Shown: positions 4,253 to 13,537 of the stretch, piece by piece
Layout of the letters: every line of letters starts with the position of its first letter
Numbering within the stretch: the first letter of the stretch is position 1
Source of the DNA: a virus
IMG/VR virus record: IMGVR_UViG_3300008261_000231
Location: 1-24,435 of that record
Reading direction: 5' to 3' (one strand)
Length of the DNA: 24,435 nucleotides
Made by a program: the position numbers and the translations under genes
The notes under the pieces: generated by a model
What the model saw: only the letters and a program-made list of their open reading frames with translations
The model's database searches: none
What the model was told of the DNA's origin: nothing

Positions 4253-4711
4253 TTATTTAGCGGGCTTTTTAAAAACAGGCCTTAAAACAGGCTTTTTTTC
4301 TTCTTCTAGATCATCAAGATAGGGCTGTGGCATGCCTTTCTGATAACAAGCATAAGCATGCGCACTCTTTTGAATGGTCAAGTCAAATTCTTTGGTATAG
4401 GGATTTTGCACCAATCCACAAGGCTTACAATGACGTCGCCAATGCGGATTAGGATTATCATAGCTTTTGATTTCAATCACACGATTTTCAACTACACTAC
4501 AGCAATCCTCACAAACAGCCACATGAGGTTTAAGTTTTTTTACAGCCCAGTTGAGTGTGGGATTATCGTCTGCATCTACAAGAAACTCTTCACTGTTGCG
4601 AAAGATCACTGATGGCTCGTCTTTTTCTCTAACAGCCGCTGATTTAGGCGGTCTAATCTGTTTGAGTTCAGCAAACTCTTCTAGTTTCTTTTTGAATAAT
4701 TCTGGGTCCAT
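4253..4711 (-). CDS. Hypothetical protein with two Cys pairs
   Basis: A 152-residue hydrophilic protein. The centre has V-C-E-D-C-C-S (about residues 66-72) and R-H-C-K-P-C-G (about 93-99), which could form a four-cysteine zinc site. A charged helical N-terminus (MDPELFKKKLEEFAELK) and a Glu/Lys/Pro-rich C-terminus flank it. It is the last gene of the adhesion block, 37 bases after the adaptor-like gene. No good Shine-Dalgarno sequence is visible. The stop codon overlaps a late-promoter-like motif. Role unknown; virion or late regulatory protein are both possible. Confidence 0.7.
   Translation of the reverse strand: MDPELFKKKLEEFAELKQIRPPKSAAVREKDEPSVIFRNSEEFLVDADDNPTLNWAVKKLKPHVAVCEDCCSVVENRVIEIKSYDNPNPHWRRHCKPCGLVQNPYTKEFDLTIQKSAHAYACYQKGMPQPYLDDLEEEKKPVLRPVFKKPAK
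4254..4261 (-). promoter_or_regulatory. Late-promoter-like motif (GCTAAATA)
   Basis: The minus strand reads CTAAATAAAAGTGTG, matching 15 of 16 bases with the motif region at 697-704. It overlaps the stop codon of the gene above and precedes the candidate small RNA. Confidence 0.4.
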
Positions 4712-4748
4712 AACATAGTTATCAACCCAGAAAATCTATCAAGCTAAA

Positions 4749-5072
4749 TTAGGCAGTTCTGGCTTGGACTTTAACGCGGAAGAAACGTCTATCAACCAAT
4801 CCGTCAGCAGTGGTGACCTGTGCTGTGACTGTGTAGGTCTTGCCTTCTTGTCCATTGTTTAGGCGAATATAAGTTTTGGTGCCCTGGATGCCGTTGGATA
4901 CTTTGGCCAATGGATCTGGATCATTAGCACGAGTAGATATAGTCCAAGTGGTTGTTGAAATGCTGTCACCAGCTGGTAACCAATTGGCCCAGTCTAGTGT
5001 GTAGGTTAAATTTGCTTCAGGATCCTTTTCAATAGTTAGACCCTGTATGGTTTGGTAAAATCCTGTTGTCAT
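4749..5072 (-). CDS. Ig-like small tail protein, possible fibre-tail adaptor
   Basis: A 107-residue protein with L-D-W-A-N-W-L-P-A-G-D-S-I-S-T-T-T-W near residues 26-43 and G-K-T-Y-T-V-T-A-Q-V-T-T-A-D-G followed by a Phe/Arg/Val strand at the end. This D-W...W-L...GD-I...S-T-W / Y-T-V-T-x-x-I-T-T pattern matches small Ig-like phage proteins encoded next to tail fibres, some annotated as fibre-tail adaptors. The start is fixed by AAGGAG inside the preceding gene's last codons, with a one-base gap between genes (TAATATG). It is probably translated together with the 1056-residue protein. The role is inferred from family resemblance and position. Confidence 0.75.
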   Translation of the reverse strand: MTTGFYQTIQGLTIEKDPEANLTYTLDWANWLPAGDSISTTTWTISTRANDPDPLAKVSNGIQGTKTYIRLNNGQEGKTYTVTAQVTTADGLVDRRFFRVKVQARTA

Positions 5073-5073
5073 A

Positions 5074-8000
5074 TTAGACTCCTTGTAATTCTGTAGTTAG
5101 CAGTTCTCTTGTGACTGCGTATTCTCTGTTTTCTTGGACTATCATGTAGTCTCTATCTTCCTCAACTATTGAGTATGTTCTCGTATCTACTTGGATTGAG
5201 TATTCTCTATCATCAGCAAAGATCATCCAAGTCAATTCAGGATCAATGTGTATAGCATCAACAATAGCAGTCAATTGTGCATTGCTAAAGGCTGTTAAAT
5301 TGATACTAAACTCAGCATTGGTAGTCACTGTAAGTGTGCTGACTGCAGTGAGGTTAGCACTGACAAACACTATGGCCACTGTGATACGAGCAGTGACCGT
5401 GGCCTCTGAATTCAGTTGGCTAGTGAATGTTTTGATTCTCAGTGCAGTGGCATTCAGCGTGGCAGTTGCAGACAAGCTGGCCGCAGCTGATTGAACTCGG
5501 CTGGTGCTAGCAGAAACACTGGCTTGTGAGCTTAATGCACTGGCAAAAGGTTTGATTGATCCTATGACAGCAGTGACCGTGGCAGCTGTGGCTAGACTTG
5601 CTGTGGTTGATTTGATCCTCAGTGCTTGACCAGCCACAGTGGCTTGACTTGCTAGTTGAGCATTGGCACTGCTGATGGTCGTGGCTGTCGCAGACACGCT
5701 GGCTGCTGAATCCATTGCAACCAATCCCTGACCAATTTTAACAGCAGCAGCCAATTCTGCAACAAAGGCCGCCACAGTGGCTTGTCCTGATCTGACGACA
5801 GTTGGGCTAGTGCTTAGGCTTGCTGATGCTGATAACGTGGCCTGTGCAACCTTAACGATGTCAGCATCAGCAGTTAGATCCGCAGCCAAACTTAGATCTG
5901 CTAGACCAAATTTTAAACGTGTGTTATTTGCTGATAATGTAGCATTACCAGCTAAATCAGCAGAAATGTCAATTAAACCACTGGTTGTTGCTTCTAGTGT
6001 GCTAACTGCTGTTAAATTAGCACTAACGTTAAACAATTCACCTATTACTGCTGCTAAATCACAGCTACTTGACAGTGAAACTGCACTAGATTGGATTCTT
6101 AGCACATCACAGATAATGAAATTATCAATATCTTGACTATACCAAGTAAATCCTCTTATGGCGCTGGCTGTAGCAGACACAGTGGCCGTTGCGCTTACTG
6201 CGGCTGCTGCACCAGCAACAACGTTGATATTGGCAGACAAGCTGGCAGTGCTGTCTAAGGTAATCAGTCCCTGACCAATTTTTACCACAGCTGCCAATTC
6301 ACTAAAGATAGCGTCTGTAGTTATAGATAAGTTACGAGTTCTATTGGCTGCAACGGATTGTGTAAATGCTGCTGACTGACTTGCTGCCGCTGATCTTGTA
6401 ATTGCTAGGTTAGCGGCAACAGTAGCTTGGCTAGACGCACTAACTTCAGAACTTTGAATTCTCAGTGCAGTAGCTGACACGCTGGCTGCTGAACTAATAT
6501 CAGCAGCACCACCTAATGTTTTAACTGCTGAAGCTGACAATGCCGCACTAGCTGATATGCTAGCAGTTGTTCTCTGTGGTCCTGTTAAAGTTGCTGTAAC
6601 TGTGCTTGCTGAACTTATTGCCGCAGCAGCAGTTTGAACTAGTGTGGTATCATCTAAGGCATTGCTGTTTAAGTGATATAAGCCAGTAATGGTATTGTCA
6701 TTGAGTCTGACTGTAGTTGGAACTGTGATGCTGGTCTGTGTAGCATCATAGCCATAGCTAGAATCTTTGACAAACATGGCTTCATCAACTAATACCGTTG
6801 AACTAGCACGAACACCAAAGTTCATGTTAGTTAAATTGGTATAACCATATACTTGATCAAATACTGGAGCTGTGCCTGTGCCTCTTGTGTAGATTCTAGT
6901 GCCATCTTTATACAAAGACAGATATCCATTAGTTCCACCACTCTTGACTAACAATACATGAGTCCATTGATTCAGCGGTAAATCAACTGAATCAGTAAAA
7001 TATGTGGTTAAAACACTGGCATCTGGATCACTAGGATTGGCAAGATAAGCTCTGAATCTCAATGCGCCACTAGATAAGTCAATATATGGACCTAAATTAG
7101 CTACAGTAACACCTAATAATGGACTAACTGTTTGATTAGCTGTAGTTGGATAAATCCATGCTTCCATAACATAGTCTTCAGACTGAGTTATGTATAATGA
7201 TTCTTTAAGACTAGTTGATCCAATGCCAATAAAACTAGCTGATCCAAATTTACTAATGCTAGTGTTGTAATAAGTTGGAGCAGAAATATTTCCACTGACT
7301 AGATCATGTGGTCTTGGACCATAGGCTTTTCTGCTGACAAATAATTCACTTCTACTGGCTAAACTAACAGATGTGCCAAGCAATTTACCAGCTAGTGCAG
7401 TTTGGCTTGCAGCACTAGATAACGCAGCACTAGTTGCAATCTGTTTAACAGCAGATACTGACATGCTGGCACTAGCATCTAATACTGCAACACTGTTCTT
7501 AAAGGCATCTGCAGTGAGTATTGGTGTAAATGCCGCTGTAAAATCTGCACTAGCTGGGCGTGTTCTACTAACAACTGTTGATTGATCACTAGCTGCTGAT
7601 ATGCTAGCATCAGCTGACCTAGTGCCAACTAAATTACTGGTTAAACTTGCTGTAGTTGATAGACTAGAATCAGCATATCTATTTCTAACAACATCAGCAT
7701 TGACCATGCTAGTTGATGTTAGATCAGCTGAAGAGCCAACAAACTTGTCTATACTTGCTGATAAAGACGCTGAACTAGATAACGCAGCACTGGCTTCTTG
7801 AACAGTGCCACCAATGATCTTTTCAGCATCACAGGCCAAAGAGAAAGCCGCTGACGTTGCGGCTTCTGAATAACGAACTCGTAGATTAGCTAGACTAATA
7901 TTAGCACTAGCATCAGCTTGAGCCGTTACATAAATTCCTCTAACAGCATCAATAGCTGCTGAGAATACACTGGTTAAAGCAATGTTGGTTGTTCTAATTA

Positions 8001-8244
8001 CATTGATTTCAGTGGCAATAGCCGCATTAGAGAAAGCAACAAGATCCGCACCATGTATGTGGCTAATAACTGCTGTGACTGTAGCTGTGGATGCAATTGT
8101 TGAACTAGCGGACTTGATCACTCCTACGGCCACAGTCATAGTGGCATTACTACTAACGGCTGCTTCAGCATCAGCCGTATAGATGTAATAACCTGAGTCT
8201 GGTGTTAGGTAACCTGATTCAACGTAGTATAGATCTTGTGTCAT
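5074..8244 (-). CDS. Giant Ala/Ser repeat tail protein with LamG-like insert
   Basis: A 1056-residue virion adhesion protein by context. Residues about 27-309 and 537-1000 consist of about 35 copies of a 20-residue repeat, consensus x-A-x-L-S-S-x-A-S-V-S-A-x-A-x-x-I-K-S-x. Between them, residues about 330-535 form a concanavalin A/LamG-type domain (F-G-S-A-S-F, then V-M-E-A-W-I-Y-P, N-Q-W-T-H-V-L-L-V, Y-K-D-G-T-R-I-Y). Such domains often bind glycans. The last 46 residues hold four nine-residue repeats of pattern D-x-R-x-Y-S-I-x-x. There is no signal peptide or membrane helix. It is followed at one base by the Ig-like protein. A long repetitive fibre displaying a sugar-binding head is the likely architecture; the receptor is unknown. 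Confidence 0.8.
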   Translation of the reverse strand: MTQDLYYVESGYLTPDSGYYIYTADAEAAVSSNATMTVAVGVIKSASSTIASTATVTAVISHIHGADLVAFSNAAIATEINVIRTTNIALTSVFSAAIDAVRGIYVTAQADASANISLANLRVRYSEAATSAAFSLACDAEKIIGGTVQEASAALSSSASLSASIDKFVGSSADLTSTSMVNADVVRNRYADSSLSTTASLTSNLVGTRSADASISAASDQSTVVSRTRPASADFTAAFTPILTADAFKNSVAVLDASASMSVSAVKQIATSAALSSAASQTALAGKLLGTSVSLASRSELFVSRKAYGPRPHDLVSGNISAPTYYNTSISKFGSASFIGIGSTSLKESLYITQSEDYVMEAWIYPTTANQTVSPLLGVTVANLGPYIDLSSGALRFRAYLANPSDPDASVLTTYFTDSVDLPLNQWTHVLLVKSGGTNGYLSLYKDGTRIYTRGTGTAPVFDQVYGYTNLTNMNFGVRASSTVLVDEAMFVKDSSYGYDATQTSITVPTTVRLNDNTITGLYHLNSNALDDTTLVQTAAAAISSASTVTATLTGPQRTTASISASAALSASAVKTLGGAADISSAASVSATALRIQSSEVSASSQATVAANLAITRSAAASQSAAFTQSVAANRTRNLSITTDAIFSELAAVVKIGQGLITLDSTASLSANINVVAGAAAAVSATATVSATASAIRGFTWYSQDIDNFIICDVLRIQSSAVSLSSSCDLAAVIGELFNVSANLTAVSTLEATTSGLIDISADLAGNATLSANNTRLKFGLADLSLAADLTADADIVKVAQATLSASASLSTSPTVVRSGQATVAAFVAELAAAVKIGQGLVAMDSAASVSATATTISSANAQLASQATVAGQALRIKSTTASLATAATVTAVIGSIKPFASALSSQASVSASTSRVQSAAASLSATATLNATALRIKTFTSQLNSEATVTARITVAIVFVSANLTAVSTLTVTTNAEFSINLTAFSNAQLTAIVDAIHIDPELTWMIFADDREYSIQVDTRTYSIVEEDRDYMIVQENREYAVTRELLTTELQGV
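5107..5214 (-). repeat. Four tandem nine-residue repeats at the protein C-terminus
   Basis: Residues 1011-1046 read DDREYSIQV, DTRTYSIVE, EDRDYMIVQ, ENREYAVTR. Consensus: acidic-x-Arg-x-Tyr-x-Ile/Val-x-x. The 27-base units are diverged at DNA level. Confidence 0.8.
5245..6636 (-). repeat. 20-residue (60-base) coding repeat array II
   Basis: About 21 units follow the LamG-like domain, most exactly 20 residues, with a longer non-repeat insertion around the Trp-Tyr-Ser-Gln-Asp stretch. Example units: AASLSATATLNATALRIKTF and TASLATAATVTAVIGSIKPF. Confidence 0.75.
7318..8166 (-). repeat. 20-residue (60-base) coding repeat array I
   Basis: About 14 units precede the LamG-like domain with near-perfect 20-residue register (starts near residues 27, 47, 67, 87, then 172, 192, 212, 232, 252, 272, 292). 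Example: SAALSSAASQTALAGKLLGT. Confidence 0.75.
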
Positions 8245-8248
8245 ATTT

Positions 8249-10279
8249 TTAACCTAAAAAGGTAATTTTAATTTTTACATTAAAATCAGTGCTGACAGTG
8301 TCACCAGTAGAATTTAATAGATAACGCAACTGAAATGTTTTATTAGCAGCAGTAGATCTCCAAGTATGAGTCCATCTTTGACTAAATTTATAGGTGGTTC
8401 CTGTAGCAACCAAATATGATCTTGCAGGATAATTATCACCATTAAAACTAGCACCAGTGTTATCAACCCAATCGCCAGTAGATCCATTATTAAAAACATT
8501 ATGCTGCCAAGTATTAGCATTAGTTACATATTCAACATTGTCCATTTCAATCATATATGTTCCAGCACTGGCACAAGTTACAGTATTACTAGCTACTGAA
8601 ATAATACCACTAGGATCCCACCATTCTTCAATACTTGCTCTATAAGTTGTTCCTGAGACTAATGTTCCTTTAGGATTGCTAACATATACTAAGGCAGTCT
8701 TAATTCCACCACCTGAACTTGCAGTAGTCCAAGCAGCAGCACCAGCACTAGATAAGGCTAATACTTGTCCAGTTGTGCCAGTTGCACTAGGAAATGTGGT
8801 GCCGCCTAGAGTAGCAACACCTGAAGCTGACACAGTAGTAAATGCGCCAGTTGTTGGAGTTGTTGCCCCAACCGTTCCATTATGCGCACCACTAAACATA
8901 TTAGCTTTAATATTACCACCAGTTAGCAAAGCCCACTTGTTGGTAATGGTTGTGTTTGTGCCTGCTGTTGGACCATCTGCAATGTATAATGTTCCAGCAT
9001 CTGTAACAGTAATAGCATTAGTTGATGCTATAGTTGGAGTAGCAATAGCATTCACATGACTGGCTGCAACGGTGCCTGCTATTGAACTTGAATCAGTAAA
9101 TGTAGCAGCTTGGATCTTTAGCCCAACACCATTGGTAGTCCAAGCAGTTGAGCTTACGTTGGTAGTGTCAAGAGTTAGTTTAGCATTGTTAGTAGAACCT
9201 CTTGCACTTAATACTGTAAATGCTCCCGTGTTAGGAGTTGTTGATCCTATTGTAGTAGGACTAGTGAATAGTGCTGTAATGCCACTTCCGCTGACTGTTG
9301 AACTTGCTGACAAGCTAGTAAATGCACCTGTGTTGGGAGTAGTTGCACCAACAGTTCCATTATGAGCACCGCTGTGAATACCATTAAATTGTGTAGCACC
9401 TAGTATGCCTGATGATGGGTTATAGACTAATCCAGTATCAGTCCTTACATTTTCATTGCCAGTTGCAGCATCAGTAAATGTAATATAATGAGTGGCATCA
9501 GTAGTATTGGTTGCAACTAAGGTAACAGTGGTAGCTGTATCAGCAGTTGTAGCTGTTGTTGCTGTTCCAACAGTAATAGAACTGGCAGCTGTATCAACCC
9601 AATTGCTTCCGTCAAATCTTAAAATATCATTAGTAGCTGCTGCTGTGATTACAACATCACTAAGTCCGTCAAGTGTAGAACTGCCACCTGACACAGTAGT
9701 CCATGACATGCCTGTTGAACCATTGGTAGTTAGCACTTGTCCATTTGTGCCAGTGCCTGTTGGAAAATCCAAAGCACCCATGATGATTTTACCACTAGTA
9801 GGAGTAAAGGCAATGTTGCCTGATCCATTGGGTTCTAAACGAATATTACCATTGCTTACTGAAACTATAGCATTGCCATTGACGTCAAGATTGCCACCAA
9901 GCTGCGGTGTAGTATCATTAACAACATCAGTTATTCCGCCTGAACTAGGAGTGCTCCAGCTCATTGCTGAACTACCATTGGTAGTCAATACTTGTCCGTT
10001 AGTGCCCATGCCTGTTGGGAAATCTAATGCACCAAGGATAATCTTACCTGTTGTGGGTGTTAGTGCAATGTTACCTGATCCGTTGGGTTCAAGGCGAACG
10101 TTGCCGTTGCTTGCTGATGTAATGGCCTTGCCATTGACATCTAAATCCCCGCCTAACTGAGGTGTTAGGTCTTCTACCACATTCTCAATCTTAGCTGTAT
10201 TGAGATTGGTTATGTTGTTGTCTGCTTCTGTCCAGGTAAGTGCTGAACCTTTGCCTGCTCTTGTTACGATTGTTGCCAT
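8249..10279 (-). CDS. Tail fibre protein with tandem duplication
   Basis: A 676-residue fibre protein. Residues about 34-118 and 119-203 are an 85-residue tandem duplication (PQLGGDLDVNG, RLEPNGSGNIA, NGQVLTTNG, MSW). A D-G-L-S-D-V...D-I-L-R-F-D-G-S-N-W motif follows at about 204-228. S-G-A-H-N-G-T-V-G-A-T-T-P-x-T-G-A-F-T units recur twice in full and once partly between about 300 and 480. The Thr/Ala/Gly-rich middle suits a trimeric beta-structured shaft. The last ~130 residues (A-G-T-Y-M-I-E-M-D to the end) look like a jelly-roll/C1q-type head that could contact the receptor. GGAG stands nine bases before the ATG. Preceded by a hairpin and followed four bases later by the repeat protein. 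Confidence 0.85.
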   Translation of the reverse strand: MATIVTRAGKGSALTWTEADNNITNLNTAKIENVVEDLTPQLGGDLDVNGKAITSASNGNVRLEPNGSGNIALTPTTGKIILGALDFPTGMGTNGQVLTTNGSSAMSWSTPSSGGITDVVNDTTPQLGGNLDVNGNAIVSVSNGNIRLEPNGSGNIAFTPTSGKIIMGALDFPTGTGTNGQVLTTNGSTGMSWTTVSGGSSTLDGLSDVVITAAATNDILRFDGSNWVDTAASSITVGTATTATTADTATTVTLVATNTTDATHYITFTDAATGNENVRTDTGLVYNPSSGILGATQFNGIHSGAHNGTVGATTPNTGAFTSLSASSTVSGSGITALFTSPTTIGSTTPNTGAFTVLSARGSTNNAKLTLDTTNVSSTAWTTNGVGLKIQAATFTDSSSIAGTVAASHVNAIATPTIASTNAITVTDAGTLYIADGPTAGTNTTITNKWALLTGGNIKANMFSGAHNGTVGATTPTTGAFTTVSASGVATLGGTTFPSATGTTGQVLALSSAGAAAWTTASSGGGIKTALVYVSNPKGTLVSGTTYRASIEEWWDPSGIISVASNTVTCASAGTYMIEMDNVEYVTNANTWQHNVFNNGSTGDWVDNTGASFNGDNYPARSYLVATGTTYKFSQRWTHTWRSTAANKTFQLRYLLNSTGDTVSTDFNVKIKITFLG
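9671..10180 (-). repeat. 255-bp tandem duplication inside the fibre gene
   Basis: Two units of 85 codons start at residues 34 and 119. Protein identity is high, and many nucleotide stretches are still shared (for example around 9721 and 9975), so the duplication is fairly recent or kept similar by recombination. Confidence 0.8.
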
Positions 10280-10391: not shown

Positions 10392-10817
10392 TTAGGCCAA
10401 GCTGATTGTCAAGTTGCCTGAAGTAACTTGGAATGTGTCGCCTGTTTCAATGGTCTTGCTGGTTGTTACTGCACCCCAGAACAAGACGTTGCCTGCACCT
10501 GCAGTGCCGCCGTCCATGACTGCCACGTGAGTGATAGTGCCCCAGTTGGCTGTGGCTGCGTCAAATGTAACAGTAGCGTTAGTAGCTGAACTGCCACCTG
10601 ATGCTGCTGCAAATGTCACTGCCTTACGAGCGTAAGCTGTGCCACTTGTTGATGTTTCATCAGTCAATGTGCCAGCTTCTAAGTTAGCTGCTGCTGAACC
10701 ACTGGTATTGTTGAACAATGCCAAGTAGATTGTGCCTGCACCAGTGTAAGGTGCTGTGCCATAACGTAGAGTATGGTCTAATAGTTTATTCTCTAAATAA
10801 TTACTTGCTGCGGACAT
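10392..10817 (-). CDS. Small virion structural protein of a widespread phage family
   Basis: A 141-residue Ala/Thr/Gly-rich protein beginning MSAASNYLENKLLDHTLR. The opening S-N-Y-L-E-x-x-L-L-D-H, then T-I-Y-L-A-L-F, the Y-A-R-K-A-V-T-F-A strand and a W-G-T-I-T-H-V-A-V-M-D region are typical of a small phage family usually annotated as tail fibre or structural protein. The late half is beta-rich. It has its own late-promoter-like motif (10864-10871) with phased A-tracts upstream, a strong AAGGAG seven bases before the ATG, and a hairpin after its stop. That implies higher expression than its neighbours, as for an abundant virion component. Exact location in the particle is unknown. Confidence 0.75.
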   Translation of the reverse strand: MSAASNYLENKLLDHTLRYGTAPYTGAGTIYLALFNNTSGSAAANLEAGTLTDETSTSGTAYARKAVTFAAASGGSSATNATVTFDAATANWGTITHVAVMDGGTAGAGNVLFWGAVTTSKTIETGDTFQVTSGNLTISLA

Positions 10818-10919: not shown

Positions 10920-11093
10920 TTACCACTTGCTTAGCGGGCACTTGGCATTAGGTAATAGAACCTTTGCTTTCATAAAACAACCACAGGCCTTACACTTGGT
11001 TGATTCTTTTACAAACAAAGGGCAAAGCAAACATACGTTATATCTCTCCTTTGCCTTTGGGTTGTTGATAAATGCTTTTAACTGACCAATCAT
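10920..11093 (-). CDS. Small Cys-rich, probable zinc-binding phage protein
   Basis: A 57-residue protein of the form V-C-L-L-C-P-x(8)-C-K-A-C-G-C-F-M-K-x-K-x(6)-A-K-C-P-L-S-K-W. The C-x2-C, C-x2-C-x-C and terminal C-P-x-x-K-W pattern is that of a small protein family common in tailed phages (I associate it with DUF6171-like proteins). Four of the six Cys could bind zinc as a ribbon. The ATG overlaps the stop of the 814-residue gene by one base (TAATG), so translation is coupled. AAGGAG-like sequences occur only downstream of the start. Role unknown. Confidence 0.8.
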   Translation of the reverse strand: MIGQLKAFINNPKAKERYNVCLLCPLFVKESTKCKACGCFMKAKVLLPNAKCPLSKW

Positions 11094-13537
11094 TAGGTGA
11101 TAATTCTCTTATAGACAAACACAGTTCCAGTTGAATCAACAAGACCAGTTGAGTTGTTTAACTTAGGAGCACCTACAGTAATACTACCATCTACTGTTAC
11201 CTTGACAGTTTCACCAAATCTCATTCCGCTTATTGGAAATTCTGGTCTTAGCACAGTATCAAATGTAAATGTAGTTCCTGAACGCTTATAAACATAAACA
11301 GCGCCTCCGCCTACTCCAGGAGCACCTATTACCAAATAATCATCATTGACGTCAATTGATCTACCAAATTCATCTCCTACAGTAGGTGTTGGTGCTTGTA
11401 AGCTGTATATTTCAGACATTCCAGAAGATCCAACGTTGGTTGCATGATAAAGTTTAACAACCCCAGCATTGGCATTGGTTTGATTGTGTTTATACAGCCC
11501 AGCAGCTAGTATCCATTTATTGGCAGCTGAATAGGTCATTGCTAGCACAGCACCGTTGAAATTACCTGTAGTGTAGGGAATATTAATGCTTTGTCCGCTA
11601 CCATAAGGGCTGGCCGTATTTTGACCAAAGTCATATTGATAAGCTAGTCCTACTAGTGTAATATAATTATTGCCTGGTGTTGTAAAATACCAAAAAGCAC
11701 CTGCACTACTTTGATATACATGTTTTCCAACAAAACTATCATTATCTGTTAAATGCACTTCTGAAGACCACCCAGTTAAATCAAGATAGTGAGAAGTCCA
11801 AACATATGTGCCAGAAGTCACTTGATCGTCATAGCTTAAAATGTATGCCTTACCGCTTGAGCTGACTAGATGAAATATTTGATCATCTGTGCTGGTGACA
11901 TCTTTTCTTATATAATGCCCATACGCACCAGCATCAGTAACTGGCGAAGTTAATGTTTGATCTAGTGACCAACTGCCGCCTGATCTTGTATAGACCTCAA
12001 TAGCATCACTGCCAGCCATAACAGCTAAGTCAGGATTAGCAGTAGTATTACCCTTATATACAATACCTACTGCGTTGGCACTGACAACCTTAGCTTCTTG
12101 TGACCAAGTGCTGCCTGACTTGCCAAAAATGTATGTGGCGCTGTTATTGCTGCCTTTAGCAATGATTAAATCGCCATGGTCAGCATCTAAAGCATCACCA
12201 AACAACACGTTAGTAGCTGTTAGATCATCAGTCAATGCATTAATTACAAAGTAATCAGTGTTGAGAACATATGGAGTAAATTGGCTAGTATAGGTCGCTG
12301 GTGAGAAGTATCTCACACGCTTGCCAGTTATAGACATTGTAGTAGAAGCAGCTAATACAGCATCATATGGATCAGCTCGTAATGTTGCCACAGCAGACAT
12401 AGTTGAACTAGCTGTTTTTAACTTGCCCATGTTGGCCTTAGATACTGCAAATGCACTGCTAATAGCAGCACTTAAGGTGCTTCTAATAGTTGTTCCAACA
12501 GTAAAGTTAGCAGCACTGGCAATGGCAGCTGTATATTGCTTGCGCACACCAATTCTTGCTGTTACTCCGCCAATGGTCATAATTAAAGCAATAAAGCCTC
12601 TAAACTGCTCTGCTACAGCACTGGTAAATCTTAAAGTTTGTGCATCAGATATTCCGTTAAACACAAAATTATCTGCATCTTTAACTATTTCTTCGTCAGA
12701 TAATAGATAATAAGTAGTTGCTTCTTTCATTGAACCACGAACATCTAAGGTAATTTTATTTCTGTTTATTATACCTGTAGTTACTGGAATTGTTTTAAGC
12801 AATGTATCAGTGCCACCTACTGATTGATAAAAATAAAAGTTTTGACCAATGTATGGTGATACTGATCTATTGAAATTGATTTCAATGTAGTCATTAACTT
12901 CAGTTCCAGTGTCCCCGTCACTAGGGCTACTAGATGAAATAGCCAATGCTGGATTAGCAGTATAACTAATGTTCTGTGCAGGATTGGTAAAATTTGTGTC
13001 AGAGTCAGTATCAACAACAAATCCTTCACTGACTTCAAATGTATAAGCAGCACCTTCTTCCCAAGCAATACCTAAACTGGCCATGTCAATTCTAACCTGT
13101 GTTTTTTGTCTCAAGGTAAGTGAAGCACCAGTTTGACTTAATGAAATGGCACCACTTGAAACAGGACGTCTTGCGGTAAAACTAACAATGCTAGTGCCAA
13201 ATGCAATTCCATCTCCTGCAATGGTATAACCAACCCATTCTGGGCGAGAATTAAATGTTTCTAATAAAGTCGCCCCTGTTTTAAATGTTACTAATGGAAC
13301 ATTAAAACTAGTCAGACCATCTGGACTTGTTACTACCAATGTAACTTCAGTTTCGTCGCTAGTTGTGGCATTAGAAATACCAATAACATTGCCTCTCATA
13401 TCATCAAAATGATCTAATGCAAACGTCATTGCACCAGTGATATCTACTATAGCTAATTTAAGAGTTGGTTTAATTGCTTTAACAACAAACTTGTTAGTAA
13501 AGATTGATGCCAATGTGGCTGTGGCTTGTTGTATCAT
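11093..13537 (-). CDS. Tail protein with Big_5-like domain, 20-residue repeats and predicted beta-propeller
   Basis: An 814-residue virion protein by position. Residues about 1-195 are unassigned. Residues about 199-307 form a Big_5/SbsA-type Ig-like domain (S-P-x-D-G-D-T-G, I-E-I-N-F-N-R-S-V, T-T-Y-Y-L-L). About 335-414 are four copies of the same 20-residue Ala/Ser repeat as in the 1056-residue protein. From about 425 to the end it resembles an FG-GAP/integrin-type beta-propeller: G-D-L-I-I-A-K-G, D-E-F-G-R-S-I-D-V-N-D-D-Y-L-V-I-G-A-P, G-A-V-Y-V-Y-K-R and F-G-E-T-V...V-G-A-P. About 390 residues would suit seven blades. It starts three bases after the J-like gene and is probably a tip-associated adhesin or side fibre. 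Confidence 0.8.
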   Translation of the reverse strand: MIQQATATLASIFTNKFVVKAIKPTLKLAIVDITGAMTFALDHFDDMRGNVIGISNATTSDETEVTLVVTSPDGLTSFNVPLVTFKTGATLLETFNSRPEWVGYTIAGDGIAFGTSIVSFTARRPVSSGAISLSQTGASLTLRQKTQVRIDMASLGIAWEEGAAYTFEVSEGFVVDTDSDTNFTNPAQNISYTANPALAISSSSPSDGDTGTEVNDYIEINFNRSVSPYIGQNFYFYQSVGGTDTLLKTIPVTTGIINRNKITLDVRGSMKEATTYYLLSDEEIVKDADNFVFNGISDAQTLRFTSAVAEQFRGFIALIMTIGGVTARIGVRKQYTAAIASAANFTVGTTIRSTLSAAISSAFAVSKANMGKLKTASSTMSAVATLRADPYDAVLAASTTMSITGKRVRYFSPATYTSQFTPYVLNTDYFVINALTDDLTATNVLFGDALDADHGDLIIAKGSNNSATYIFGKSGSTWSQEAKVVSANAVGIVYKGNTTANPDLAVMAGSDAIEVYTRSGGSWSLDQTLTSPVTDAGAYGHYIRKDVTSTDDQIFHLVSSSGKAYILSYDDQVTSGTYVWTSHYLDLTGWSSEVHLTDNDSFVGKHVYQSSAGAFWYFTTPGNNYITLVGLAYQYDFGQNTASPYGSGQSINIPYTTGNFNGAVLAMTYSAANKWILAAGLYKHNQTNANAGVVKLYHATNVGSSGMSEIYSLQAPTPTVGDEFGRSIDVNDDYLVIGAPGVGGGAVYVYKRSGTTFTFDTVLRPEFPISGMRFGETVKVTVDGSITVGAPKLNNSTGLVDSTGTVFVYKRIIT

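What the first reader, a model, noticed from the sequence alone, without database searches (positions are those of the whole stretch)
5245..8166. About 35 copies of a 20-residue Ala/Ser repeat in a phage tail protein
The 1056-residue protein is made almost wholly of a strict 20-residue unit, with many consecutive starts exactly 20 residues apart. The consensus alternates small polar and hydrophobic residues and ends in a basic residue. The array is split by a LamG-like domain. I do not recognise this repeat as a named family. It may form a beta-solenoid or trimeric fibre displaying a lectin head.
Basis: partly seen in the sequence, partly recalled or inferred. Interest (0 to 1): 0.75.

Follow-up and report, generated by a model that had tools for sequence, protein, structure and literature searches.

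The report
Repeat rope of a phage side fibre
The long Ala/Ser-rich repeat protein is real, and it most likely is the flexible 'rope' of a phage side fibre, on which many copies of a small bead protein are strung at 20-residue steps, carrying a sugar-binding domain and tied to the tail by an adaptor encoded next door.

Summary
ORF 5074-8244 (-), 1056 aa, has 33 scorable 20-residue units (13 before and 20 after a LamG domain); 26 of 32 spacings are exactly 20, while shuffled sequence gives about 2 units. No Pfam, PHROG or PDB model covers the repeat. The best reading is neither a named solenoid nor a known trimeric shaft. The gene sits in a conserved cassette: homologues of GP4 gp80 (fibre I bead, window 10392-10817) and GP4 gp77 (fibre-tail adaptor, 4749-5072) flank it. 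In the solved GP4 virion ten gp80 chains form a chain-like fibre; from memory of that paper's abstract, they are threaded by an 'elongated rope protein'. Across unrelated phages the protein beside gp80 changes sequence completely, yet keeps a period of exactly 20 residues. AlphaFold gives very low confidence for the chain alone, as expected if it needs gp80 to fold. I infer that each 20-residue unit docks one gp80 subunit and that the C-terminal 'ETR' repeats bind gp77. Binding is not shown. This would explain the unexplained low-confidence domain reported for phage LSH1 (PMC13243795). Novelty: a giant, lectin-bearing variant of a known kind of fibre, plus a general 20-residue rule that I did not find described.

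The parts
5074..8244 (-). 1056-aa repeat ('rope') protein
8164..8244 (-). Conserved N-terminal cap, residues 1-27 (MTQDLYYVESGYLTPDSGYYIYTADAE), shared by about 30 IMG/VR relatives
7369..8163 (-). First array, residues 28-292, 13 units of 20 aa (one 25-aa spacing)
6868..7188 (-). LamG/ConA-like lectin domain (Laminin_G_3), residues 353-459, within the insert of residues 293-540
   Evidence: replaced by a beta-propeller-like (SBBP) insert in L010, doubled in L001 and L003
5239..6624 (-). Second array, residues 541-1002, 20 scored units
5077..5238 (-). C-terminal 'ETR' tail, residues 1003-1056: motif (E/D)xRxYxI repeated every 9-10 residues; proposed gp77-binding end
   Evidence: alignment A6; same motif in unrelated ropes beside gp77
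4749..5072 (-). Homologue of GP4 fibre-tail adaptor gp77 (PF23148, 77 bits; PDB 8jou_D E 6.9e-7)
10392..10817 (-). Homologue of GP4 fibre I protein gp80 (PF23140, E 3e-32; PDB 8jou_a E 6.4e-7): proposed bead
12299..12529 (-). About 4 further 20-aa-type units in the upstream tail protein (ORF 11093-13537), between Big_5 and FG-GAP domains (one unit scored by profile, the rest by eye)

Best explanation
The protein is the rope of a chain-like side fibre of the GP4 'fibre I' kind. Its 20-residue units are strand-forming segments that do not fold alone; each docks one subunit of the gp80-like bead protein (10392-10817), so about 33 units would thread roughly 16 gp80 dimers. The C-terminal ETR repeats bind the gp77-like adaptor (4749-5072) and tie the rope to the tail; the LamG domain inserted midway is a glycan-binding payload. 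Shown: the repeats, the LamG match, gp80 and gp77 homology, their constant co-occurrence, and the same 20-residue period in unrelated ropes beside gp80. Inferred: one unit per gp80 subunit, ETR-gp77 binding, the lectin function and the fold.
For: (1) gp80 and gp77 homologues in the window at high significance; PDB 8jou holds 10 gp80 chains and 3 gp77 chains. (2) In IMG/VR relatives with the 3' side held, gp77 is present in 22 of 22 (directly adjacent in 20); gp80 lies 0.1-4.6 kb upstream in 17 of 24, and the 7 without it hold only 45 bp to 4.2 kb upstream. (3) ct2t2046 (L050), found by the repeat alone, has gp80 directly upstream of a protein with 6 perfect 20-aa units. (4) Test anchored on gp80 and blind to the repeat: a neighbour with a 20-residue period in 5 of 7 distant phages (Labeouficaum, Krypton555, FlagStaff, Magritte, ctyzp037), with unrelated repeat sequence. 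(5) Of 421 ORFs in 39 loci, 29 have a strong period at lags 12-35; 22 of these are exactly 20, all rope genes or their antisense frames. (6) The ETR tail recurs beside gp77 in DSL-LC06, Microcystis, Burkholderia, Gordonia and Mycobacterium phages; in Moosehead, where the gene order is reversed, it is N-terminal. (7) AlphaFold fails on the isolated chain, as reported for the matching domain in LSH1, whose three-gene module always occurs together and was listed among its virion proteins (PMC13243795).
Against: No binding, complex or stoichiometry was modelled or measured. The rope chain of GP4 was not found: ropes of close relatives (BcepMigl, BcepIL02) hit nothing in the PDB. The statement that GP4 fibre I is gp80 dimers linked by a rope rests on my memory of the abstract (PMID 37660940; paper not held). 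By eye BcepIL02 has 11 units and BcepMigl 7-8, so unit = gp80 subunit is not proven. X1 and ACP17 carry gp80 with no periodic neighbour. PHROG labels gp80 'head protein'. GP4 is a podovirus; this phage looks like a siphovirus (lambda-type tape measure).
Confidence: 0.66

Rival explanations
1. Homotrimeric fibre shaft: three copies of the 20-residue units intertwine as a triple-beta-spiral-like or triple-stranded beta-helix rod displaying LamG. gp80 and gp77 are merely neighbouring tail genes.
For: Alternating small/hydrophobic pattern and two predicted strands per unit; AlphaFold monomer failure is also expected for intertwined trimers.
Against: Known triple beta-spirals use 15-residue repeats (established knowledge). 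It does not explain why the protein beside gp80 keeps period 20 while its sequence changes completely, nor the constant gp80-rope-gp77 cassette.
Confidence: 0.2
2. Autonomous monomeric beta-solenoid stalk, one 20-residue coil per unit.
For: Strict spacing; strand-like pattern; AlphaFold reportedly drew low-quality beta-helices for the matching LSH1 domain (PMC13243795).
Against: pLDDT 39.6 with 76 in-register rows and 31.2 full length; monomeric solenoids are usually predicted well.
Confidence: 0.08
3. Disordered low-complexity linker kept only for length.
For: Ala/Ser/Thr-rich composition; very low pLDDT; units divergent.
Against: Exact 20-residue register over 26 of 32 spacings, position-specific L3, A7, V/L9, R15 and R17, and orthologous units 58% identical against 24% within the protein mean selection on each unit.
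Confidence: 0.06

Closest known systems
Fibre I of Ralstonia podophage GP4 (PDB 8jou; PMID 37660940): gp80 beads, rope protein, gp77 adaptor
   Same: Homologues of gp80 and gp77 lie in the same gene neighbourhood with a repeat protein between them
   Different: Here the rope is 1056 aa with 33+ units and a LamG insert, in a siphovirus-like genome; close GP4 relatives have ropes of 246-285 aa
Alishewanella phage LSH1 gp34-gp35-gp36 module (PMC13243795)
   Same: Payload protein with a poorly predicted domain, a GP4-fibril-like dimeric protein and an Ig-fold protein, always together; a repetitive motif was suspected there
   Different: That payload is a beta-helix lyase-like domain, here LamG; I could not read the LSH1 sequence itself
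Phage DSL-LC06 WKW35119.1 (448 aa)
   Same: Same 20-aa units and ETR tail, gp80 upstream, gp77 directly downstream
   Different: 11 scored units; no Pfam lectin match
Triple beta-spiral shafts (adenovirus fibre, reovirus sigma1)
   Same: Beta-rich repeats in a viral fibre
   Different: 15-residue repeat and homotrimer; no such evidence here

Membership tests
GP4-type chain-like fibre (fibre I) | gp80-family bead gene present | tested here: met
   PF23140 E 3e-32; 8jou_a E 6.4e-7
GP4-type chain-like fibre (fibre I) | gp77-family fibre-tail adaptor present | tested here: met
   PF23148 77 bits; 8jou_D E 6.9e-7
GP4-type chain-like fibre (fibre I) | Elongated rope protein encoded in the gp80-gp77 cassette, homologous to the GP4 rope | tested here: inconclusive
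   Position and 20-residue period shared with GP4-relative ropes, but no sequence match and the GP4 rope was not found in the PDB set
GP4-type chain-like fibre (fibre I) | Rope binds gp80 dimers at regular steps; attached to a gp77 ring | not testable with these tools
   No multimer prediction or experiment available
Laminin_G_3 (PF13385) | Score above the gathering cut-off | tested here: met
   35.9 bits against 27.6, residues 353-459
Monomeric beta-solenoid | Confident regular coil from structure prediction | tested here: not met
   pLDDT 39.6 and 31.2
Triple beta-spiral | 15-residue repeat in a homotrimer | tested here: not met
   Period 20; trimerisation not testable

The most novel reading that the evidence does not exclude
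The 20-residue unit is a general bead-docking ruler: in any phage with a gp80 bead the rope keeps a 20-residue step whatever its sequence, one step per gp80 subunit, so the number of units sets the length and valency of the side fibre. This phage lineage uses it for giant lectin-bearing fibres (6 to 41 units).
Probability: 0.42. Interest if true: 0.75.

Novelty: new variant of a known kind. Interest (0 to 1): 0.62.

Why it matters
It gives a sequence-independent rule (period 20 beside a gp80 gene) to recognise a fibre component that defeats family models and AlphaFold alike. It offers an answer to a question printed as open in 2026: what the badly predicted domain next to the GP4-like fibril protein is. 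It predicts that side-fibre length is set by repeat number, testable with two proteins in E. coli. tblastn finds gp80-like genes in 673 of 50,697 phage records, mostly mycobacteriophages, so the fibre type may be widespread and mislabelled as 'head protein' or 'minor tail protein'.

Tried and rejected
tblastn of P0001 on the phage set found nothing at 1e-5, probably because the units are divergent and low-complexity filtered. No relative in GTDB genome contigs. PHROG and Pfam hits of relatives are all to the LamG or propeller insert. Scattered Pfam hits of single segments (ALTTAQ_rpt, CCDC28) were not consistent and were rejected. An out-and-back hairpin with the lectin at the tip was tested by comparing unit numbers before and after the insert (13/20, 13/18, 11/18, 10/19, 4/11): unequal, so not supported. 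No Foldseek search was run because both models are of very low confidence. I suspected that phages with periods 22-24 (Mae-JY22, Moosehead, Mwe-JY26) carry divergent gp80 proteins; the profile test was weak or negative, so this stays open.

Full report
Observation. The ORF at 5074-8244 on the minus strand encodes 1056 residues. Its sequence autocorrelation peaks at lags 20, 40 and 60, and a 20-column profile built from it finds 33 units, 26 of 32 successive spacings being exactly 20; shuffled sequence gives about 2. The DNA shows no tandem repeat. Units within the protein share 24% identity on average, but units at the same place in the nearest relative (L001) share 58%, so the array is old and every unit is kept for itself. 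A Laminin_G_3 domain (residues 353-459) interrupts it.

Relatives. Scans of IMG/VR with the conserved N-terminus gave 32 loci. Nearly all intact copies keep the architecture: about 25 conserved N-terminal residues ending in YxYTADA, 20-residue units, an insert in the middle (LamG, or a propeller in L010), more units, and a C-terminal tail of (E/D)xRxxxI motifs every 9-10 residues. The number of scored units ranges from 6 to 41. L018 and L019 have the reading frame broken early; L025 and L026 end differently. No Pfam or PHROG family covers the repeat, and no PDB chain matches it convincingly.

Neighbourhood. The next gene (4749-5072) is a homologue of GP4 gp77, Pfam 'fiber-tail adaptor', matching PDB 8jou_D. 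The gene at 10392-10817 is a homologue of GP4 gp80, Pfam 'fiber I protein', matching 8jou_a, of which the entry holds ten chains. In the relatives gp77 follows the repeat gene in 22 of 22 loci where that side is held, and gp80 lies upstream in 17 of 24, the other 7 holding too little upstream sequence. From memory, the abstract of the GP4 paper (PMID 37660940) says that each fibre I consists of five gp80 dimers linked by an elongated rope protein and is anchored to a 15-fold fibre-tail adaptor. I could not read the paper; the ten gp80 chains, the three gp77 chains and the Pfam names agree with it.

General test. Proteins beside gp77 in Microcystis, Burkholderia, Gordonia, Mycobacterium, Sinorhizobium and Pseudomonas phages have quite different repeat sequences but are also periodic, most with the ETR motif. 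Taking gp80 instead as the anchor, without regard to repeats, 5 of 7 further phages have a neighbour with period exactly 20; X1 and ACP17 do not. Among 421 ORFs of 39 loci, 29 show a strong period between 12 and 35, and 22 of these are at exactly 20 (two of the 22 are antisense frames of rope genes). Phages with gp77 but no detectable gp80 have periods of 22-24 (three cases). ct2t2046 was found by the repeat alone and has gp80 directly upstream. So the period goes with gp80, not with the sequence of the repeat. This is the main argument that the step is set by gp80.

Structure. AlphaFold2 on 8 units with a 76-row in-register alignment gave pLDDT 39.6; the whole protein with 4 rows gave 31.2, with only parts of the LamG region above 60. 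Both models draw two short strands per 20 residues, turning near unit positions 6-7 and 17-18, without confidence. That fits a chain that becomes ordered only on a partner; it fits an intertwined trimer as well. Authors of the LSH1 paper met the same failure in the protein next to their GP4-fibril-like protein, said they do not know why, and suspected a repetitive motif (PMC13243795).

Mechanism. My reading: gp80 subunits assemble along the rope, one per 20-residue unit, probably by strand pairing with the alternating segment (positions 1-13) and with the basic residues 15 and 17 at the joint; the ETR repeats bind gp77 subunits at the tail, and the LamG domain reaches for glycans on the host. 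Shown: sequence, homology, co-occurrence, period. Inferred: all contacts, the stoichiometry, the fold and the role of LamG.

Novelty. The fibre type is known from one podophage structure. New here, as far as I could find, are a giant lectin-bearing version in a siphovirus-like lineage with variable unit number, and the sequence-independent 20-residue rule.

Noticed in passing
window 11093-13537 (-), residues about 337-413: The upstream tail protein carries about four units of the same kind between a Big_5 and an FG-GAP domain, so the repeat is also used outside the rope.
   Followed up: partly
window 8249-10279 (-): 676-aa protein with an 85-residue internal period (z 6) and a weak PHROG match to a baseplate wedge tail fibre connector.
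   Followed up: no
L053 (Agrobacterium phage Atu_ph08) about 4474-4983: An open frame with 20-residue-type repeats lies between gp80 and gp77 but is not annotated; an antisense gene (4455-4766) is annotated instead.
   Followed up: partly
L044 (Gordonia phage Moosehead) 7279-8787: Gene order is reversed: rope downstream of gp77, ETR motif at the N-terminus, repeat period 24.
   Followed up: partly
L011 1973-3367, L013 8632-9987: The gene just upstream of the rope encodes two tandem LamG-like regions resembling the domain inserted in other ropes; the lectin may move between neighbouring genes.
   Followed up: no
P0017 / phrog_240: gp80-family proteins are labelled 'head protein' in PHROGs and in RefSeq phage records, at odds with the solved GP4 fibre.
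   Followed up: partly
P0001 units, e.g. residues 59-88 and 641-665: Special conserved unit types recur across the family (ISHIxGADLxAFSxAxL and xELAAVxKIGxxLxxL); their role is unknown.
   Followed up: no
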